NCBI GenBank assembly: GCA_016932965.1
Contig: JAFGBW010000154.1
Location: 1-24,981, forward strand
Origin: Candidatus Auribacterota bacterium
GTDB lineage: Bacteria; Auribacterota; JAFGBW01
Direction: 5' to 3'
Length of the DNA: 24,981 bases
Positions within the stretch are counted from its first letter, which is position 1, and each line of letters opens with the position of its first letter. Positions 5,223 to 24,981 of the stretch are shown in pieces. A model generated the notes under the pieces. The model was given only the letters and a program-made list of their open reading frames with translations. It was not told where the DNA came from and searched no databases. The translations under genes were made by a program, and so were the position numbers.

Positions 5223-5873
5223 ATGTGGTATTCTCAAGACCTGAAACAGGCTGTGTTGGTGATAGTTATATCTGTTTTAGTGGTGCCTTCAGGATATGTG
5301 CAGGCATCACGGCAGAACTTGGTTTCCGGAAATAAAACGGTGTTTCACATGCTGGCACCGGAGAGTAATTTTCCAGTAAAAAAAAGACAATCGCAAAAAG
5401 CATCACAGGAAGTAATCAAATCGCAGAAACCCATGTCCACTGGAAAGATTCTGGCCCTGACGTTTGTTCTTTCCGCTGTCGTGTTACTTAGTCAGGGCGA
5501 TAGAAGCCGACCGGATTTCACGATTCCCATGGGAAGAAATATCATCTCGATTCAGAACAAGTCCGGTATTGAAGACCCGGATGAAATCATTTCCGAGGAA
5601 AATGACCTGGATGAACGTCTGTCCGAGCGGGGTGAAGCATTCAGGGACAGGGATTTGTCGCTGGAAGAAGCCGGTGAGGATACACCATCCCGGGATCCGG
5701 AACACGATGACATGACTCAGAGGGGGGCCGACAGGAAGCGGAGGAAAACAGCCTGGATGAGATCCCTTTTGTGCCTGACGGTGCCAGGGATGAGGATGAG
5801 TCCCCTGCTGATGCGGATGAGGACAGGGATGAACCGGTTCCCGATCCTGGAGGAGGTGATGAAAAGATTGTGA
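5223..5873 (+). CDS. N-terminal part of a frameshifted exported/anchored protein
   Basis: The preferred ATG at 5223 gives a normal signal peptide or anchor (MWYSQDLKQAVLVIVISVLV, ending near SGYVQA); the frame is also open from an ATG at 5145. Next comes T-x4-LAP-E-S, a Lys/Gln-rich stretch, a second hydrophobic segment (GKILALTFVLSAVVLLS) and then a strongly acidic linker (EDPDEIISEENDLDE). Past about 5727 the frame loses its acidic character and becomes basic and Met/Arg-rich, while the -1 frame continues the acidic linker into a globular domain. The gene is therefore probably continuous with the C-terminal part at 5771-6457, broken by one missing base in the G6 tract at 5722-5727. No homologue is recognised. 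Confidence 0.6.
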   Translation: MWYSQDLKQAVLVIVISVLVVPSGYVQASRQNLVSGNKTVFHMLAPESNFPVKKRQSQKASQEVIKSQKPMSTGKILALTFVLSAVVLLSQGDRSRPDFTIPMGRNIISIQNKSGIEDPDEIISEENDLDERLSERGEAFRDRDLSLEEAGEDTPSRDPEHDDMTQRGADRKRRKTAWMRSLLCLTVPGMRMSPLLMRMRTGMNRFPILEEVMKRL

Positions 5874-10075: not shown

Positions 10076-12112
10076 ATGAAAATCATTGAAAAACTGGAAC
10101 TGCTGGAAAGAATCGTGACGGACATGAATTCAGCCGTGTCCCCGGATGAACTGCTCAATCATCTCATGGACAAATGTCTTGTCATGACCGGTGCCACAAC
10201 CGGCAGTATCATGCTCATCAATCCTGAAACCCAGGTGCTGGACATCAGGGTTTCCAGAGGACTTGCACGAGAAAAAGTCCGTGAAACCAAACTCAAATTG
10301 GGACAGGGTGTGACAGGCCATGTCGCCCTGACCGGAAAACCGCTTCTCATCAATGATGCAGATAAAGTCCACTACTACGTCCGGGTCAGAGACGACCTCA
10401 AATCAGAACTGGCCTTTCCTTTGAAAACGGATAATCAAATCATCGGCGTTATCAGCGTCGATAGCGTCCGAAAAAATGCCTTTGGACAACAGGACATGGA
10501 TATTCTGCATACCTTGTCCCAGGTTTCGGTTCAGATCCTGCAAAAAGCCAATTTGATCGAGGATTTAAAATTAAAAATCAAAGATCAACAGCTCATCCTG
10601 AATATTGCTGAAATCATTGAAGAACAGACAGAGCCGAATAAGGTTTTCTCCCTGATCATGAAAACGCTTTCTGATGCCATGCCGGTCAAACGGGGATTCA
10701 TCGCCATGCTAGATGATATGAAAAATATCAAAATCTTTTACGGCTACCATTTGAGTGAAGAAGCCATGCAAAGGGGCATCTACAAAATCGGTGAAGGGGT
10801 CATCGGAACGGTGATGAATTCCGGCAAGATGACAGCCGTAAAAAATATTTCAGCCAGCCAGGAATTTTTAAACCGCATGAAGATAAAAAGGGGTAAAGAC
10901 GAGACTAATTCATTTTTTGCTTTGCCATTAAAGTATGAGAGGAAAATACTCGGCGTCCTGGGCATGGAGAAAAGTTATTCAGATGACAAGGATTTCAAAA
11001 GCACAAAAGAGCTTTTATCAGTCGTCAGCTCCCTGCTTTCCTACAAGGTACACAACTATGAACGGAACAGGCTTGAAAAGGACACCCTGCTCAGGCAGAA
11101 CAGGGAGCTGAAAGAAAAGCTGCTGGACAAGGAGTCCGGCGTTCATTACATCGGAAAAAATCAAAAAGTCAGGGAGATCCTGGAGATCATTCAAACCGTA
11201 GCCGACACTGAAGCGACCGTTTTGATCTCAGGTGAAACCGGAACAGGGAAGGAAATCCTGGCCAAAATGCTTCATTACAGAAGCCGGTTCCGTGAGAAAC
11301 CGTTCGTCAGCATCAATTGCGCCTCCATACCCGAAACCCTTCTTGAATCAGAATTGTTCGGATACAAAAAAGGCGCCTTCACAGGAGCCGTGTCCGATAA
11401 GAAGGGAAAATTTGTTCTGGCTGACGGAGGGAGTCTGTTTCTGGATGAAATAGGGGACATGAGTCTGCCCCTGCAGGCCAAACTGCTCAGGGCCCTGCAG
11501 GAGAAAATAATCGAACCTTTAGGGGATGAAAAATCGTTCAAGGTCAATGTCCGTATCATCGCCGCAACCAACCGGGACGTGGCCGCTCTGGTCAGGGAAA
11601 ACAAATTCAGGGAGGATTTGTATTATCGACTCAATGTCATCCCTGTCAGGGTCCCCTCCTTATCCGAAAGAAAAGAGGACATCCCCCTTTTGATCGAGCA
11701 CTTTATCGGGCTTTACAGGGAGAAATATCATAAAGAAATAACCGGTGTGACCGAACGAGCCGGAGAGGCCATGCTCCGATACAGATGGCCTGGAAATGTA
11801 CGTGAACTGGAGAATGTTATAGAAAGGGCTGTCATCCTTTCCAGGAGCACATGGATTGATATCCATGAACTAAATGAAAATATCATCCCTGAGATGAGTG
11901 ATGACGAAAGGGATTCATTTGGAAAAATCCTCCAGGAAGAAATCCATTCATGCGTACCCGGTAAAATATATAAAACAGTCGTTTCTAAAATGGAAAAACA
12001 CCTCATCCAGCATGCCCTCGTCCAAACCAGTCATAATCAGGTTGCAGCGGCCCGGTGGCTGGGAGTGCACAGGAACACCCTGCGAATCAAGGTGAAAGAT
12101 TATCAGTTATGA
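10076..12112 (+). CDS. Sigma-54-dependent activator, GAF-GAF-AAA+-Fis HTH (NifA-like)
   Basis: The 678-residue protein starts at the ATG at 10076, which has AAGGA eight bases upstream; a longer in-frame start at 10007 lacks this. Two GAF sensory domains (about 20-165 and 190-340) precede an AAA+ sigma-54 domain (about 365-600). That domain has Walker A GETGTGKE at 386, the sigma-54 contact loop GAFTGA at 433-438, and Walker B LFLDE with D457-E458. A Fis-type helix-turn-helix ends the protein (NQVAAARWLGVHRNTLRIK). Such proteins hydrolyse ATP to open sigma-54 promoters, and the GAF pair probably binds a small ligand or partner. Divergence from amtB-glnK suggests it controls that operon, but this is inference. 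It overlaps hydF by 6 bp at the 3' end. Confidence 0.93.
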   Translation: MKIIEKLELLERIVTDMNSAVSPDELLNHLMDKCLVMTGATTGSIMLINPETQVLDIRVSRGLAREKVRETKLKLGQGVTGHVALTGKPLLINDADKVHYYVRVRDDLKSELAFPLKTDNQIIGVISVDSVRKNAFGQQDMDILHTLSQVSVQILQKANLIEDLKLKIKDQQLILNIAEIIEEQTEPNKVFSLIMKTLSDAMPVKRGFIAMLDDMKNIKIFYGYHLSEEAMQRGIYKIGEGVIGTVMNSGKMTAVKNISASQEFLNRMKIKRGKDETNSFFALPLKYERKILGVLGMEKSYSDDKDFKSTKELLSVVSSLLSYKVHNYERNRLEKDTLLRQNRELKEKLLDKESGVHYIGKNQKVREILEIIQTVADTEATVLISGETGTGKEILAKMLHYRSRFREKPFVSINCASIPETLLESELFGYKKGAFTGAVSDKKGKFVLADGGSLFLDEIGDMSLPLQAKLLRALQEKIIEPLGDEKSFKVNVRIIAATNRDVAALVRENKFREDLYYRLNVIPVRVPSLSERKEDIPLLIEHFIGLYREKYHKEITGVTERAGEAMLRYRWPGNVRELENVIERAVILSRSTWIDIHELNENIIPEMSDDERDSFGKILQEEIHSCVPGKIYKTVVSKMEKHLIQHALVQTSHNQVAAARWLGVHRNTLRIKVKDYQL

Positions 12113-13387
12113 TTGAGCGGATGGATGGACGCCTTCATTTTTTCCGGATAGACTCAGGCGCTCAAATACATCCCAGGCGGCCGGAAATGGAGACAGGACC
12201 CTTTTCAGTACCCCATGCAGAAAGGAAATGCACAGTCCGTAATTGGTGACTCCAATCCCGTCCAGTTCCGCCCTCCGGATCCTCAGATGCATTTCCCTGG
12301 ATGTCAGCATGCATGCCCCGCAATGAATGATGAGCTTATAACCAGTCATATCAGACGGGTAGTCCCTGCCTGAGGAAATATCAACGGTCAAATCCATCCC
12401 GGTATACTGGCGGAGCCATCTTGGAATTTTAACCCGGCCGATATCATCCTGAAGGGCATGATGGGAGCATGCTTCTGCTATCAATACTTTATCGCCGGGT
12501 TTCAACCGGTCGATGACGGTGAGACCTTTTGTCAGGGTATTCAAATCCCCCTTGAAACGGGCGAACAGAATGGAGAAGGTTGTGCATTTGACGGATACCG
12601 GGGTGTCTGCGATCATTTTCTGGACAGCCTGTGAATCACACACCACCAGATCCGGGACACGTTTCAGATTTTCAAGGATGTGTGAATATTCCCTCTCCTT
12701 GACAATGATGACAGAAGCATCGTTATCCAGGGCATCCCGTATGGTTTGCACCTGAGGAAGAATGAGTCTGCCTTTGGGAGCTTCAAGATCGATGGGAACA
12801 ATGAGAATGACCATGCCTCCCGATGGTACGAGATCGCTGATCAGGGAGGGAGATGAAAGATGTCCTTCGGGCAGAATCTGCATCAATGCCGTCTTAAAAT
12901 CGGTTATATAATGTTCCCGATTTTTCATATCCAGGCAGGAACAGGAGATGACCTGTCCAATCGCGGATTTGATCTTCTCGATGAAGCTCGGCTCAGGAGG
13001 ACGGACATCGATCTTATTGAGGACGGCAATAACCGGAATGGTATTTTTACGGCACTCGGCGATTATTTTTTCTTCGAATTCACCGAAGATACCGGATTCG
13101 ATCACGATGACCGCGACATCGGCCCTGTGAAAAATCTTCATGGTTTTTTCCATTCTGTCGGCTGATAAAGTCGAATCATCATCCACACCGGCGGTATCCA
13201 GCAAAACGACCGGTCCGACGGGCAGAAGTTCCATCGTTTTTTCAACCACGTCGGTTGTCGTACCGGGATGACAGGAGGTGATGGCGGTTTTCTGGCCGCA
13301 GATCATGTTGAGAAAACTGGATTTCCCGACATTGGTCCTGCCGAAAATGCCTATCTGCAGACGCAATCCCTTGGGAACTTCATTCAT
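12107..13387 (-). CDS. hydF: [FeFe]-hydrogenase maturation GTPase HydF
   Basis: The 426-residue protein has an N-terminal GTPase domain: G1 GRTNVGKSS (residues 16-24), G2 TTTD, G3 DTAG (64-67) and G4 NKID (124-127). A dimerisation domain and a C-terminal iron-sulphur domain follow. The HydF-specific ligand pattern CxHx45HCxxC is complete, with C307, H309, H355, C356 and C359. HydF is the scaffold on which HydE and HydG assemble the 2Fe subcluster before transfer to HydA. Neither hydE, hydG nor a hydrogenase gene is in the window. It lies 43 bp behind aspA on the same strand, an arrangement also seen in other hydrogenase maturation clusters. No good ribosome-binding site precedes the ATG. Confidence 0.95.
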   Translation of the reverse strand: MNEVPKGLRLQIGIFGRTNVGKSSFLNMICGQKTAITSCHPGTTTDVVEKTMELLPVGPVVLLDTAGVDDDSTLSADRMEKTMKIFHRADVAVIVIESGIFGEFEEKIIAECRKNTIPVIAVLNKIDVRPPEPSFIEKIKSAIGQVISCSCLDMKNREHYITDFKTALMQILPEGHLSSPSLISDLVPSGGMVILIVPIDLEAPKGRLILPQVQTIRDALDNDASVIIVKEREYSHILENLKRVPDLVVCDSQAVQKMIADTPVSVKCTTFSILFARFKGDLNTLTKGLTVIDRLKPGDKVLIAEACSHHALQDDIGRVKIPRWLRQYTGMDLTVDISSGRDYPSDMTGYKLIIHCGACMLTSREMHLRIRRAELDGIGVTNYGLCISFLHGVLKRVLSPFPAAWDVFERLSLSGKNEGVHPSAQS

Positions 13388-19768: not shown

Positions 19769-19803
19769 ACATGCATTGACAAATGCCTTGCATGTGGTAA
19801 ATA
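19769..19803 (+). promoter_or_regulatory. Promoter with flanking dyad upstream of the giant gene
   Basis: A perfect -35 TTGACA (19776-19781) is followed 16 bases later by TAAATA (19798-19803), a poor -10. A 7-bp dyad ACATGCA (19769-19775) and TGCATGT (19789-19795) brackets the -35 box, the usual place for a repressor or activator site. Confidence 0.45.
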
Positions 19804-19927: not shown

Positions 19928-19955
19928 ATTTTTAGATTGAGGAGGAAGGATTAAC

Positions 19956-22900
19956 ATGAACGATTTTCTCAAAAAATTAAAATGGATTCATATTTGCGTG
20001 ATCATAACCATGATGAGCCAATCCCTTGTGTATGGCCAGGGCGTGGTGAATGATCAAACCGCAGGCAGACATCTGGCCCCGAAATCACAGATTGAGTCCA
20101 TGCTGGATGAAGGCCGTTCTAGAGATGATAAGAAGAAAGCAGAGACCATTCTTACCCTTTTAGATCAGGAGGAATTTCAAGGCATACGTGATCTGATCAG
20201 GCAGAGGCAGCCAAAAATACTGCAGTCGGAGGATATGTATGAGGTGGAGGCGCAAGTAACAGAATTCCTGGTCAATGAGATGGAAAGAGGCAATCCGATG
20301 CAGGACGCCATTCTGTCTGAAAAAGCTGAATATGCCGTTTATAAAGATTTCAGGAAAGAGGCCGGCCTGGAGCAGACGGGCAGAGAAGCCAGCCTGGCAG
20401 GCAGAACCGGCAGGGTTGCTGAATATGAGTCCCATTACTCAAAACGCAGGACAGCTTATGAATCCATTTTTGTGAAGTCCCCGGATTCCCAGGAGAATGA
20501 CGGCGGATTAAATGCAGCTACGGCCGATAGATTTTTCACGGTCCTTGATAACGCGATGTTATATCATCAATTTTTTCAGGCACTTCTCACTCTACCAATT
20601 GAATTAAAAGGAAGGCAGGCTTTAAGATTCGAAAGAGACAGGGGAAGGAGAGAAAGCCGGCTCATCACTGTCATTATTAATGCAGTGCAAAAAATCCGGG
20701 AGGCCAACCAAGAGCTGGGTGAACAGGCTGTCCTGATTTCACAAGAAGTGCTGGGTGACATCATTCTTAAGGGCGTCAAGGCCCGCAACACGGAAGCAGC
20801 GGAACTGATAGAAGAGCTTGAGGCATTACAGCGGAAACTTCCCGGCGGAGAAAAAGAAGCGGATTATGAGGCGGCAAGACAGGCGGCGGAACTGGCTGAT
20901 ATTCACATCAGGGAAATTCAAGGTGTCGTCAGAAACGAGGATGGAAAAATTCAGGATCTGTTGATAAACAGCGCACAAATCATTGAAATAAAAACTCAAA
21001 TACAGACCTGGCGAACTGCACTCTCCACAAATGAGAGGGAACAACAGCAATATGCAGGGGTTCAATCTGAAGAAGCTGTTGCAGCAATGGGAACTCTGAA
21101 TGAAGCGCATCAGACTCTTTCAGGACTCATTACCTCTTTGGAAGCTTCATTAACGGCTCTGATGCAGACAGGCAATGAGTTTAATGACGCGCACCGGCAA
21201 TCCAGGACTTCTGTCGGCCTATATGATGAGCAAATCAGGCAGGCCTATAGTCTGGCTGAGAAATACCAGGGAAGCCCGGATGGATCAAGGGAGCTTGCAG
21301 TTTTCGAAAAAGCTCAAGAAGCCCTGCAGGCATTGGAAAAGGAACAACAGAATCTGTTATGGCTGGATCAGCTTGGTTCCAAACTCACAGGATTGTATTT
21401 CAATCTGAGTATGACCTTTGAGGCCCAGGCAGCTCTTGATGAACAGTTCAACCAGGCCTACTACGCCTTGTTAGAAACCTCCTTTATGCGGGAAACTGCT
21501 GAACAGACAGCCCAAGAAGTGAAAAAAAGGCTGGATGCGTTGAGTGCATGGTTCGCAAACAGCCTGCCGTTCCACGGAATTGCCGAGGGGATCAATCCGC
21601 TCGACGAAACAACCCCGCAGATCACGGATTTATTGAACCATCTTTATGGGCCGGACATGGCGACTGCAAATCCTGATATACACAGAGCGGCCCAGGACCT
21701 TTTACTGAATTATGAAGCCGTTGTTCTTCAGCCTTTTATGGCTGTCAGGGAAAGGGAAATAGCGTTCTGGGGAAGCACTGCTCATGCTCCTGTTGAGATT
21801 GCTCCGGCATTTGTATCCCTTTTTCAGGAAGCAGGCATTACGGTTGTGCCTATGGAAGATAATAAGGTTCAGATGGACTATCCGCATTGTCTGGACGATG
21901 CCGTGGCCTATCTTGTGCAAATGAACCGCTTGATCACTGAGGCACAAGGCTTATTCGTTGAAGGAAACCTGCCGCAGGAAAATGTTGAAAAATACAATGA
22001 GCTTGTATCCATGTATACGGTTCTTGCCCAGGGGGGCATCAATTTATTGAACTCCATTATCTTTTCCATCCGGTTTCGTTCTTTCAGTCCTGAAGTCATT
22101 CAAATGAAGGCCGAGGCCAGACCCATTGCAGTAAACCTGCTGGAGGAATTTTCACGCAGGCTCGCGGAAATAACCCAGATAACCGATCGTCAGGGGATCC
22201 AACCTCCAACAGTCGAATCCCCCTCCCCACTTCCCCAGGAGCCGGCTGAACCTACAGTACAGCCTTCTTCTGATACATCTACTGCGGAGCCGGCGCCTGC
22301 AGGTGAACCAGGCACTCCTCTTCCTGCTGAATCTCCTATTGCAGAGCCTGAAATACCCATTGATGTTGTGATAGATGCTGCGGTTGATACGGCACAAACT
22401 CTTGCTGACGAAGAGACCCAGGCTGATCAACAAGGTGGTACTGGAGCGCGGGCCAGGGTAAGGAATCTCATATGGAGAATTCTTGGCGGCGCAGGCATTG
22501 TTCTTCTGTGCATAGCCATTCCAGCAGGCGTCATAGCTGGTCCTGCCGCAGGAGGCGTTGCTGTATGGCTGACCTCCAATACCGTTTTTGTTTTCCTGCT
22601 CGTTGCGTTTGCAGCAGCTCTTCTATTCTATATTGCTTCGTATATAAAATTTAAAAAACTGCCGAGTCTTCGCGGCCTATTAGGTTCTATGTTTTTAGGC
22701 TCGGTCGCAGGAGGCATTGTCATTGGCCTGATAAAACTGTATGCCGCGTATCCCATCATTGGAGCTATACTCATCGGCGTTGCGGTGCTCTTTATACTCT
22801 GGCTTTTAGGAGTGGAAAAAGGCCTGTGGCGGATTTTGAGCAAATATGTGTTCACCCGGGCCAACCTGAAGCGTTTGATCTTTGTTGTTGCAGCGATAGC

Positions 22901-24981
22901 GATTGGCGCCTCATTAGGAGTGGGAGGGCTGACTGTTTGGAATTTATGGGCCATGAATAAAGCGTTTTCAATCGGGATGGGAGCGGCGCTTGCGGGTATA
23001 CTCATTCTGACAGGAATAGCCTATTTTAAGACATCTGAAACACCTCCTGACTGGATGGGAAGAATAGGCAGAGGGAGTCTTTGGCTGGCAAAAAAGAGCG
23101 TCACATTAGGTCTCATAGGCCTTATTGGATTCGGTGTTTTTAAAGTTTATGCGGCAGGCGGAATTCTTGCAGCATTAGGGGTTGGGGCGCCTGCATTGCT
23201 TGTTGCCATTGCACTTGTCTTCGGGATCTCAGGTCTCCGCACCTTCTTTAGAGGCATAGGCAGGTTTTTCAGGGGCGTTTCAAACGTCATATCATGGAAA
23301 GGCGCGGTGATTCTTCTGGGTTCTTTTGGAGTCCCTTTATTTTTAGGTTGGGTCGCCATTACTCATGCTTCGATACTGCCCTTTCTTGGTCTGGCTATAC
23401 TGGGAGCCGCGGTGCTTTTCCTGTTATGGAAATATCTTGGATTCAGCAGGACCCTGTTTGTTTTATCAGCCGCGGCCCTTTTGACAACAATCTTTGTGCT
23501 TTGGAGTATTCCTTCGTGGTATCTGGTTCCGGTGCTGGCCGTTGTATTGTTAGCGGCAATTTTATGGGATTATTTCAAGATATCGGACGCGATAAGAAAA
23601 TCCAGTCCCTGGGTCAAGTTTGGACTGGCTCTAACTGCCATCGGTGCACCGATAGCCCTGTTGGTGGCTCTGGGTCTACCCCAAGCCCCACCGGCAGGTA
23701 CAGGTGAAGAAGGCGGAGCAAAAGTGACCATGTCTTCCGCGGCACGCAAACAAATAGCTGAAAGACAGGCAGAGGAGACTAAAGCGGCGTTTGAACAATC
23801 TGCCCAGCAATTACCTGACCTCGGAATACCTGGTTATACATCCCCTCCGCCTGAAAAAGCGAATTACGCCGGAAACATCATCCTCACTTTTCTTGAAGAC
23901 AACGGTTTTCCTGAAAATCCTGAATCGCCAGAACTCGAGGATTTTCTGGATGGGATTGATAATCACATAAGGACCGGCGGAACATTCAATCATACTCCGG
24001 GTGATGATAACAGTGTTGATAATAAATTAACTTCATTTAGATCGCAGTTGGAAGCCAATAATCTGGCTCCGGATGTGGTTGAACAGGCAGTGGATGCGTT
24101 GGAAATTTATCTGAATCAGCATGTTCAGGATGAAGCGCCTGCTCCTGCGCCGGATGTAACGCCTTCGCCTGACCAGCCGGCCCCGCCGACTGCGGCTCCC
24201 ACGCCGGATCAGCCGCCGGCTCCAGAGGCCGCACCTGCGCCTGCTGCGCCGGTTGTGAAGAAAATAGTCACTTACGCTCCCACGGACCTGACAGATGCCC
24301 AGACTGCGGAAGCAGTCAGTGCTATCAATACTATACAGGCAGAATCCAACTCCAGCAGTAAACCTGTCTTGAATAATTATCTCAATATTCTAAAGGGTGA
24401 TATGGAGGCTTCCAACAATAAAGGCCAGGGTTTATATGAAGATCTGCGCCATTTTGAAGATAATCGTGAAACCTGGAAATTATGGGTACAGCAAAACCTT
24501 CGTTTGGCCAGGGATAAGGGAGAAATATCAGAGGATGAGATGATCAATCTCAAAGCTGAACTTTTTGGTATTTTGGGCAAACTGCCTGTACCTAATAGAT
24601 ATGTTAAAACCGTAACCGTTAATGCTCCCGCAGATGGAACCGCAGGCCCTGCCGCAGGGACCACCACAGCCAGAACACCAAGAGCCAAAGCTCCTGCGGA
24701 TACGGCGGCTCAGGCTGCTGCTGCGGCAAGAGTGATAACTGAAGGAGCTGCCGAGGCCAATGCCCAGGAGGCAGCACCTCAGCCAGCTCAGCCTGTGGTT
24801 GCACGGGTTGTATCTCCTACAGGAGCCGATAGCACCGCTACCGCTCCTGCGACTGAGCCTGAGGCAAAGCCGCTTAGTTATGCTCAACTGGAGAAACTCC
24901 GGCAGGAGGCTTTAAATACCTCTATTCCGGCACTGGTTCTGCAAATTCGAGATATATTGATTCCTGATCTGCAAATTGAAA
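19956..24981 (+). CDS. Giant coiled-coil/multi-pass membrane protein, 3' end beyond window
   Basis: The frame is open from the ATG at 19956 to the window edge (1675 codons, no stop), behind a strong GAGGAGGAAGG. Residues 1-31 look like a signal peptide (WIHICVIITMMSQSLVYGQG), followed by T-x4-LAP-K-S. Residues about 45-740 are charged and helical, with coiled-coil-like stretches around 270-475 (ELIEELEALQRKL). A Pro/Glu-rich linker spans 748-803. About 13 hydrophobic helices occupy 835-1245, arranged as recurring hairpins with similar loops (LIKLYAAYPI, VFKVYAAGGI). After them come a charged region, a Pro/Ala linker (about 1392-1435), another helical part and an Ala-rich linker (about 1549-1635). 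I recognise no enzyme motif or family. It could be a giant surface or envelope-spanning protein, but the function is unknown. Confidence 0.85.
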   Translation, partial: MNDFLKKLKWIHICVIITMMSQSLVYGQGVVNDQTAGRHLAPKSQIESMLDEGRSRDDKKKAETILTLLDQEEFQGIRDLIRQRQPKILQSEDMYEVEAQVTEFLVNEMERGNPMQDAILSEKAEYAVYKDFRKEAGLEQTGREASLAGRTGRVAEYESHYSKRRTAYESIFVKSPDSQENDGGLNAATADRFFTVLDNAMLYHQFFQALLTLPIELKGRQALRFERDRGRRESRLITVIINAVQKIREANQELGEQAVLISQEVLGDIILKGVKARNTEAAELIEELEALQRKLPGGEKEADYEAARQAAELADIHIREIQGVVRNEDGKIQDLLINSAQIIEIKTQIQTWRTALSTNEREQQQYAGVQSEEAVAAMGTLNEAHQTLSGLITSLEASLTALMQTGNEFNDAHRQSRTSVGLYDEQIRQAYSLAEKYQGSPDGSRELAVFEKAQEALQALEKEQQNLLWLDQLGSKLTGLYFNLSMTFEAQAALDEQFNQAYYALLETSFMRETAEQTAQEVKKRLDALSAWFANSLPFHGIAEGINPLDETTPQITDLLNHLYGPDMATANPDIHRAAQDLLLNYEAVVLQPFMAVREREIAFWGSTAHAPVEIAPAFVSLFQEAGITVVPMEDNKVQMDYPHCLDDAVAYLVQMNRLITEAQGLFVEGNLPQENVEKYNELVSMYTVLAQGGINLLNSIIFSIRFRSFSPEVIQMKAEARPIAVNLLEEFSRRLAEITQITDRQGIQPPTVESPSPLPQEPAEPTVQPSSDTSTAEPAPAGEPGTPLPAESPIAEPEIPIDVVIDAAVDTAQTLADEETQADQQGGTGARARVRNLIWRILGGAGIVLLCIAIPAGVIAGPAAGGVAVWLTSNTVFVFLLVAFAAALLFYIASYIKFKKLPSLRGLLGSMFLGSVAGGIVIGLIKLYAAYPIIGAILIGVAVLFILWLLGVEKGLWRILSKYVFTRANLKRLIFVVAAIAIGASLGVGGLTVWNLWAMNKAFSIGMGAALAGILILTGIAYFKTSETPPDWMGRIGRGSLWLAKKSVTLGLIGLIGFGVFKVYAAGGILAALGVGAPALLVAIALVFGISGLRTFFRGIGRFFRGVSNVISWKGAVILLGSFGVPLFLGWVAITHASILPFLGLAILGAAVLFLLWKYLGFSRTLFVLSAAALLTTIFVLWSIPSWYLVPVLAVVLLAAILWDYFKISDAIRKSSPWVKFGLALTAIGAPIALLVALGLPQAPPAGTGEEGGAKVTMSSAARKQIAERQAEETKAAFEQSAQQLPDLGIPGYTSPPPEKANYAGNIILTFLEDNGFPENPESPELEDFLDGIDNHIRTGGTFNHTPGDDNSVDNKLTSFRSQLEANNLAPDVVEQAVDALEIYLNQHVQDEAPAPAPDVTPSPDQPAPPTAAPTPDQPPAPEAAPAPAAPVVKKIVTYAPTDLTDAQTAEAVSAINTIQAESNSSSKPVLNNYLNILKGDMEASNNKGQGLYEDLRHFEDNRETWKLWVQQNLRLARDKGEISEDEMINLKAELFGILGKLPVPNRYVKTVTVNAPADGTAGPAAGTTTARTPRAKAPADTAAQAAAAARVITEGAAEANAQEAAPQPAQPVVARVVSPTGADSTATAPATEPEAKPLSYAQLEKLRQEALNTSIPALVLQIRDILIPDLQIE

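What the first reader, a model, noticed from the sequence alone, without database searches (positions are those of the whole stretch)
19956..24981. Giant envelope protein with coiled coil, repeated membrane hairpins and Pro-rich linkers
At least 1675 codons in one frame combine a signal peptide, a roughly 700-residue helical region, about 13 transmembrane helices and two further low-complexity linkers. A long exported coiled coil joined to so many helices in one chain is unusual and matches no family I know. It could bridge periplasm and inner membrane.
Basis: partly seen in the sequence, partly recalled or inferred. Interest (0 to 1): 0.72.

Follow-up and report, generated by a model that had tools for sequence, protein, structure and literature searches.

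The report
Giant membrane protein with export motif
The gene makes a very large, previously undescribed membrane protein, and it is one of more than 30 proteins found in about a quarter of this bacterium's genome that carry the same short tag (LAPxS) behind an export signal, which suggests an undescribed protein-sorting route.

Summary
The ORF at 19956-24980 is open to the contig end, with a strong ribosome-binding site, a signal peptide, a mostly helical region of about 700 residues, Pro-rich linkers and 13 hydrophobic segments (842-1241). Contig C295 overlaps the window end in frame (112 bp, 9 mismatches) and continues the protein to a stop at about 2456 residues. No Pfam, NCBIfam, PDB or fold match was found, and no homologue in 43 other genomes of the phylum. 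The long coiled coil is only partly supported. K/R counts in the loops (30 versus 3) put the N-domain on the cytoplasmic side, which conflicts with the signal peptide.

The larger result lies in the N-terminus. Just after the signal peptide comes HLAPKS. In 28% of this genome, 35 of 248 signal-peptide-like ORFs carry L[AST]Px[ST] there (shuffled mean 1.5, maximum 7 of 2000). Motif-bearing proteins include ATP-, SAM-, PLP- or acetyl-CoA-dependent enzymes. Motif-free exported proteins are porins, TonB receptors and binding proteins. I read the giant as a membrane-anchored helical member of an undescribed LAPxS-tagged export class. The class is well supported; the destination and the giant's function are inferred.

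The parts
19776..19803 (+). Promoter-like TTGACA-N16-TAAATA (in TTGAC...GGTAAATAC)
   Evidence: Read directly. A very similar box (TTGACAAGCTCCGTATATATGGTAAATAC) lies upstream of the HLAPKS protein in contig C34. TTGAC-N16-20-TAAATA is upstream of 5 of 39 motif genes against 4 of 213 other signal-peptide genes.
19940..19949 (+). Ribosome-binding site AGGAGGAAGG
19956..24980 (+). Giant ORF, 1675 codons in the window, open at the contig end; about 2456 aa when continued into contig C295
19956..20036 (+). Sec signal peptide (about residues 1-27), -3/-1 site V-Y-G
   Evidence: Sequence; hydrophobic core weaker than a TM helix (dG about +2.4)
20070..20087 (+). HLAPKS motif, residues 39-44
20088..22154 (+). 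N-terminal helical domain (residues 45-733), with short heptad-like stretches in 301-535
   Evidence: low-confidence model
22155..22409 (+). Pro-rich linker, residues 734-818
22479..23678 (+). Membrane region, 13 hydrophobic segments (residues 842-1241) as six hairpins plus one; basic loops all on one side
23841..23939 (+). Pro-rich stretch, residues 1296-1328
24090..24314 (+). Pro/Ala-rich linker, residues 1379-1453
24771..24884 (+). Pro/Ala-rich linker, residues 1606-1643
24870..24981 (+). Overlap with the end of contig C295 (L003, minus strand), which carries the remaining 781 residues and the stop
   Evidence: 112 bp, 9 mismatches, in frame
5223..5873 (+). Second protein of the LAPxS class in the window (216 aa; signal peptide, then HMLAPES)

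Best explanation
The ORF is a real, lineage-specific giant protein of probably 2456 residues. It is exported by a signal peptide and carries the short motif L-[A/S]-P-x-[S/T] (often with a hydrophobic residue at the next position but one) near its mature N-terminus. The motif defines a class of perhaps 120 proteins in this genome (extrapolated from 35 in 28%). I think it is a second sorting signal: after crossing the inner membrane, tagged proteins are separated from ordinary periplasmic and outer-membrane proteins and sent to a particular place. The cargo includes ATP-, SAM-, PLP- and acetyl-CoA-dependent enzymes, so that place should hold cytoplasm-like cofactors: another cell, or an internal compartment. 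Within the class the giant would be a structural part, a 12-13-helix membrane anchor with long flexible helical arms before and after it that tethers or spaces things at that membrane. Shown: the anatomy, and the motif's enrichment and association with a distinct protein set. Inferred: that the motif sorts, the destination, and the tether role.
For: Blind test: 248 signal-peptide-like ORFs in 890 kb of this genome; 35 hold L[AST]Px[ST] in the 45 residues after the hydrophobic core, against 1.48 expected (2000 shuffles, maximum 7). L.P.S/LAP.S is the top pattern in an unbiased search. Permuted motifs give 1-6 hits where the real one gives about 38. In 12 of 35 the L sits at a possible +1 of signal-peptidase cleavage, e.g. 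...VTLFA|LAPLS...NSHA|LAPRS...PVQA|LAPVS. Motif-bearing proteins match Radical_SAM (two), B12-binding, PRK+CYTH, AAA_5 (two), OKR_DC, Pkinase, PfkB, GNAT, methyltransferase, MBL, Amidohydro_2 and GH116. Several cofactor motifs are intact (CxxxCxxC, Walker A, SFHK). Motif-free exported proteins match OmpH, TonB receptors, porins, FadL, phosphate-binding and thioredoxin families. 10 of 13 versus 0 of 10 with cytosol-type cofactors, Fisher p = 0.00025. The giant and the C34 protein share only the signal peptide and motif (38% over 47 aa, E 7e-8), then diverge.
Against: No secretion machinery that reads the motif was found, and export was predicted only from hydrophobicity, with no dedicated signal-peptide predictor. 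The K/R bias puts the giant's N-domain on the cytoplasmic side, at odds with export. The giant is the only strongly polytopic member of those scanned. No homologue means no conservation test. The motif-free set of 20 was picked with a stricter signal-peptide filter than the motif-bearing set.
Confidence: 0.5

Rival explanations
1. An orphan inner-membrane envelope protein of ordinary kind: exported helical domain, polytopic anchor and a C-terminal domain. The LAPxS match is shared but has no sorting role, for example a signal-peptidase context or a composition habit.
For: In about a third of cases the motif sits at the presumed cleavage site, so it could belong to cleavage itself.
Against: Composition is excluded by the shuffles, and the motif is absent from the sampled motif-free exported proteins of the same genome that use the same signal peptidase. 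Most copies lie 5-25 residues beyond the core.
Confidence: 0.2
2. The tagged proteins, the giant included, are effectors delivered into another cell. The giant would insert in the target membrane from the target's cytosol, which would make its basic loops and N-domain lie on the same, cytosolic, side.
For: It reconciles the signal peptide with the K/R bias. The class contains WD40, protein kinase, AAA+ and other cytosol-type domains and more giants (L058, L091). Post-signal-peptide motifs mark exported proteins in Plasmodium (PEXEL, general knowledge) and effectors in oomycetes (RxLR; PMC3207932, abstract seen).
Against: No delivery system was identified. No ATP/ADP translocase was found, but that search rang nowhere, controls included, so it is uninformative. 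A 3.1 Mb genome with nadA, HydF and ammonium transport does not look like an obligate intracellular one. Metabolic enzymes are unusual effectors.
Confidence: 0.15
3. The N-terminal hydrophobic stretch plus LAPxS is not a Sec export signal. It anchors proteins to, or imports them into, an internal compartment or membrane while the body stays on the cytoplasmic side.
For: Fits the cofactor-dependent enzymes and the K/R bias of the giant.
Against: Most N-termini look canonical, with plausible SPase I sites, like those of the porins and TonB receptors in the same genome.
Confidence: 0.1
4. A mechanosensitive channel of the MscK/MscM type: signal peptide, long periplasmic coiled coil, about 11 TM helices, MscS domain.
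For: Same order of parts for the first three elements (from general knowledge).
Against: No match to any Pfam family at E up to 1 in 1675 aa, nor at E up to 0.001 in the C-terminal 818 aa, whereas the MscS domain is normally easy to detect.
Confidence: 0.02
5. An assembly chimera or a wrong join with C295.
For: The overlap has 9 mismatches in 112 bp, more than a clean k-mer join; the other end of the window overlaps contig C228 by 30 exact bases.
Against: The 1675 codons in the window are open with clear codon-position bias (GC1-3 59.5/42.4/44.9%). The overlap is end to end and in frame, with mostly synonymous changes, as for two strains.
Confidence: 0.05

Closest known systems
Giant ORFs of Omnitrophota (PMC10066038)
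   Same: Very large, poorly conserved ORFs with several predicted TM helices and few known domains in uncultured bacteria; the Velamenicoccus giant has 42 predicted TM helices.
   Different: Those are ORFs over 20 kb (the Velamenicoccus one 39,678 aa), some with adhesin or laminin-like domains. This one is about 7.4 kb with no known domain and a compact 13-segment membrane region. No post-signal-peptide motif is described there (the word 'signal' does not occur in that text). The phylum of this genome was not identified.
MscK / MscM mechanosensitive channels
   Same: Signal peptide, long helical exported domain, about 11 TM helices in one chain.
   Different: No MscS-type domain or related Pfam family found; longer N-domain; Pro-rich linkers; a C-terminal arm of about 1200 residues.
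PEXEL (Plasmodium) and RxLR (oomycete) motifs
   Same: A short motif a few to about 30 residues behind a signal peptide, shared by otherwise unrelated proteins sent to a special destination.
   Different: Different sequence, and a bacterium. No protease or translocon is known, and many cargos look like ordinary metabolic or regulatory enzymes.
Bacterial sorting tags (LPXTG, PEP-CTERM, YSIRK and others)
   Same: A short tag added to the Sec signal that defines a sub-class of exported proteins.
   Different: Those are C-terminal or lie inside the signal peptide (general knowledge). This tag follows the signal peptide at the N-terminus, and NCBIfam gave no tag model for ten tagged N-termini.

Membership tests
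MscK/MscM (MscS superfamily) | MscS pore and beta domain detectable by Pfam | tested here: not met
   0 families at E up to 1 for P0001; 0 for the continuation P0002
MscK/MscM (MscS superfamily) | Signal peptide, periplasmic helical domain, about 11 TM helices | tested here: inconclusive
   Signal peptide and 13 hydrophobic segments present, but topology conflicts with the K/R bias
Giant ORFs of Omnitrophota | ORF longer than 20 kb | tested here: not met
   About 7.4 kb joined
Giant ORFs of Omnitrophota | Genome belongs to Omnitrophota | not testable with these tools
LAPxS post-signal-peptide class (defined here) | Signal peptide followed within about 45 residues by L[AST]Px[ST] | tested here: met
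   HLAPKS at residues 39-44; 35 of 248 in this genome against 1.5 expected
LAPxS post-signal-peptide class (defined here) | Motif directs sorting or processing | not testable with these tools
   Needs an experiment
PEXEL / RxLR host-targeting signals | RxLxE/Q/D or RxLR sequence | tested here: not met
   Consensus is L-A/S-P-x-S/T
Type 9 secretion cargo | T9SS translocon SprA in the genome | tested here: inconclusive
   PF14349 not found, but the search rang in no control genome

The most novel reading that the evidence does not exclude
This lineage has an undescribed N-terminal protein-sorting system: a Sec signal peptide plus an LAPxSx(hydrophobic) tag that sends more than a hundred proteins, including cofactor-dependent cytosol-type enzymes and several giants such as this one, to a destination distinct from periplasm and outer membrane (an internal compartment or another cell).
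Probability: 0.5. Interest if true: 0.85.

Novelty: new variant of a known kind. Interest (0 to 1): 0.62.

Why it matters
A giant orphan membrane protein alone is a curiosity. A shared tag behind the signal peptide of a protein set full of radical SAM enzymes, kinases, AAA+ ATPases and PLP enzymes is different. Such enzymes need cofactors that the periplasm is not thought to hold, so either a bacterium keeps a second cofactor-filled compartment, or it ships these enzymes into other cells. Either would be surprising, and the motif makes the question directly testable with reporter fusions. It also gives a simple rule for finding the cargo in other genomes.

Tried and rejected
MscK-type channel: considered first from the order of parts, rejected for lack of any MscS-type match. 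Homologues: none by tblastn in genome contigs patterns or in 44 genomes of the phylum for either half; two weak hits to the C-terminal half (E 0.14 and 0.37) were dropped, the first after its ORF read as a sulfatase/HEAT-like protein. Wider searches of 300-400 genomes failed for technical reasons. Structure: AF2 without an alignment gave pLDDT 42 and 55; the PDB fold search gave nothing below E = 2. Naming the organism: HydF found only two Syntrophaceae relatives at 59-60%, too little to name the phylum. ATP/ADP translocase and SprA searches rang nowhere, controls included, so they say nothing. A common promoter for the class: TTGAC-N16-20-TAAATA in 5 of 39 against 4 of 213, suggestive only. 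HLAPxS by DNA pattern across the phylum: no clear excess in most genomes. Literature: 'LAPxS' in no paper of the held library; no paper found on a post-signal-peptide bacterial tag.

Full report
WHAT IS THERE. The frame from ATG 19956 is open to the last codon of the window (1675 residues), with a strong AGGAGGAAGG ribosome-binding site and a TTGACA-N16-TAAATA promoter-like box. The window ends where contig C229 ends. The reverse complement of contig C295 (8561 bp) starts with 112 bp that match the window's last 112 bp (9 mismatches, one residue change) and continues the same frame for 781 residues to a stop. The likely full length is 2456 residues. The mismatches suggest two strains in the assembly, so the join is inferred, not proven. 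The other window end overlaps contig C228 by 30 exact bases and completes a different gene there.

ANATOMY. Signal peptide about 1-27; HLAPKS at 39-44; a predicted helical domain to about 733 (AF2 without alignment, pLDDT 42); Pro-rich linker 734-818; 13 hydrophobic segments in 842-1241; then about 1200 residues of Pro/Ala-rich linkers and low-hydropathy sequence. Heptad-like stretches are short and lie between 301 and 535. The hairpins share a topology; sequence duplication is moderately supported for hairpin 2 vs 5 and for the two halves, but not by the ungapped test.

TOPOLOGY PROBLEM. Counting K/R in the loops gives 30 on one side, which includes the N-domain side of TM1, and 3 on the other. 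By the positive-inside rule the N-domain lies in the cytoplasm; by the signal peptide it lies outside. TM1 not spanning (leaving 12 TM helices), an unseen crossing in the N-domain, or insertion after export would each resolve it. Nothing here decides between them.

RELATIVES. No Pfam, NCBIfam or PDB family, no fold match, no homologue in the other 43 genomes of the phylum or in genome contigs by pattern. The protein is an orphan at the level of its order.

THE MOTIF. A second ORF in the window (5223-5873) has HMLAPES after its signal peptide. The DNA pattern for HLAPxS gave 5 hits in the genome and 0 for the reversed control; three of the other four lie just behind a signal peptide in unrelated proteins. 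I then took 890 kb of this genome. A gene and signal-peptide picker blind to the motif gave 248 tails; 35 hold L[AST]Px[ST], against 1.48 in shuffled tails (maximum 7 of 2000). LAP, L.P.S and LAP.S lead an unbiased pattern search. The consensus is L-A/S-P-x-S/T with F, V, I or L often two residues later. A few are false, such as the BtuF-like L102 and the short L052:3512. Motif-bearing ORFs lie on more than 20 contigs, so contamination of one or a few contigs does not explain them.

WHO CARRIES IT. Motif-bearing proteins match radical SAM (two, one with a B12 domain), PRK+CYTH kinase, OKR decarboxylase, AAA_5 with VWA-like sequence (L058, at least 2781 aa), AAA_5+WD40 (L091, at least 2866 aa), protein kinase, PfkB, GNAT, methyltransferase, MBL, amidohydrolase and GH116; many have no match. 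Active-site motifs are intact in several; for the protein kinase, PfkB and amidohydrolase my simple patterns did not find all the expected residues. Twenty motif-free exported proteins of the same genome match OmpH, TonB receptors, porins, FadL, phosphate-binding, thioredoxin and ankyrin families. Among proteins with a Pfam match, 10 of 13 tagged and 0 of 10 untagged need a cytosol-type cofactor (p = 0.00025). The picks were not perfectly matched, so treat this p-value as approximate.

HOW FAR IT REACHES. None of 123 signal-peptide-like ORFs of G001 and 19 of G002 (same order) have the motif. One protein of G006 (another family) does: 1022 aa, signal peptide, LAPETTF, starch-synthase catalytic domain, again a cytosol-type enzyme. 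So the class may be patchy in the phylum.

MECHANISM. Shown: anatomy, enrichment, and a distinct protein set. Inferred: tagged proteins cross the inner membrane by Sec and are then sorted by the tag, with or without trimming (12 of 35 motifs sit at a possible +1), to a place with cytoplasm-like cofactors. The giant is probably a structural member: a polytopic anchor with long arms. I hold the class as real at about 0.85, the sorting role at about 0.55, and the tether role at about 0.35.

COMPARISON. It works like PEXEL or RxLR systems in layout (tag behind the signal peptide), but the sequence differs and no machinery is known. NCBIfam gave no model for the tag, and 'LAPxS' is in no paper of the held library. 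Giant ORFs with TM helices are known from Omnitrophota (PMC10066038), but those are ORFs over 20 kb and no such tag is described there.

Noticed in passing
G000 contigs (e.g. L024, L044, L098): Signal peptide followed by L[AS]Px[ST] in about 35 proteins within 28% of the genome; contig C37 (L098) alone holds eight.
   Followed up: yes
L058:8166-16508 (+), G000:C16: Another giant (at least 2781 aa, open at the contig end): signal peptide, LSPSS, VWA-like MIDAS (DLSGS) and two AAA_5 ATPase stretches.
   Followed up: partly
L091:1171-9768 (+), G000:C29: A further giant (at least 2866 aa): signal peptide, LAPRS, AAA_5 and WD40 repeats.
   Followed up: partly
L166:838-3906 (-), G006:C71: In another family of the phylum, a starch-synthase-like protein with signal peptide and LAPETTF.
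   Followed up: partly
L023:1-1215 (-), G000:C34: HLAPKS protein sharing signal peptide and motif (SQSLVYGQ...HLAPKS) and a similar promoter box with the giant, but no similarity beyond; cut by the contig end.
   Followed up: yes
L003:3027-3347 (-) and L003:5405-5785 (-): Two similar small proteins (KEIKFGSKTL..., with CxxC pairs) next to the giant's 3' part.
   Followed up: no
window 12107-13387 (-): HydF-like GTPase whose only close relatives found were Syntrophaceae at 59-60% identity, possibly acquired from there.
   Followed up: partly
G000:C230: The contig reads entirely as N (withheld), so nothing could be said about it.
   Followed up: no
L100:5948-7540 (-), G000:C39: Exported ankyrin-repeat protein without the LAPxS motif.
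   Followed up: no
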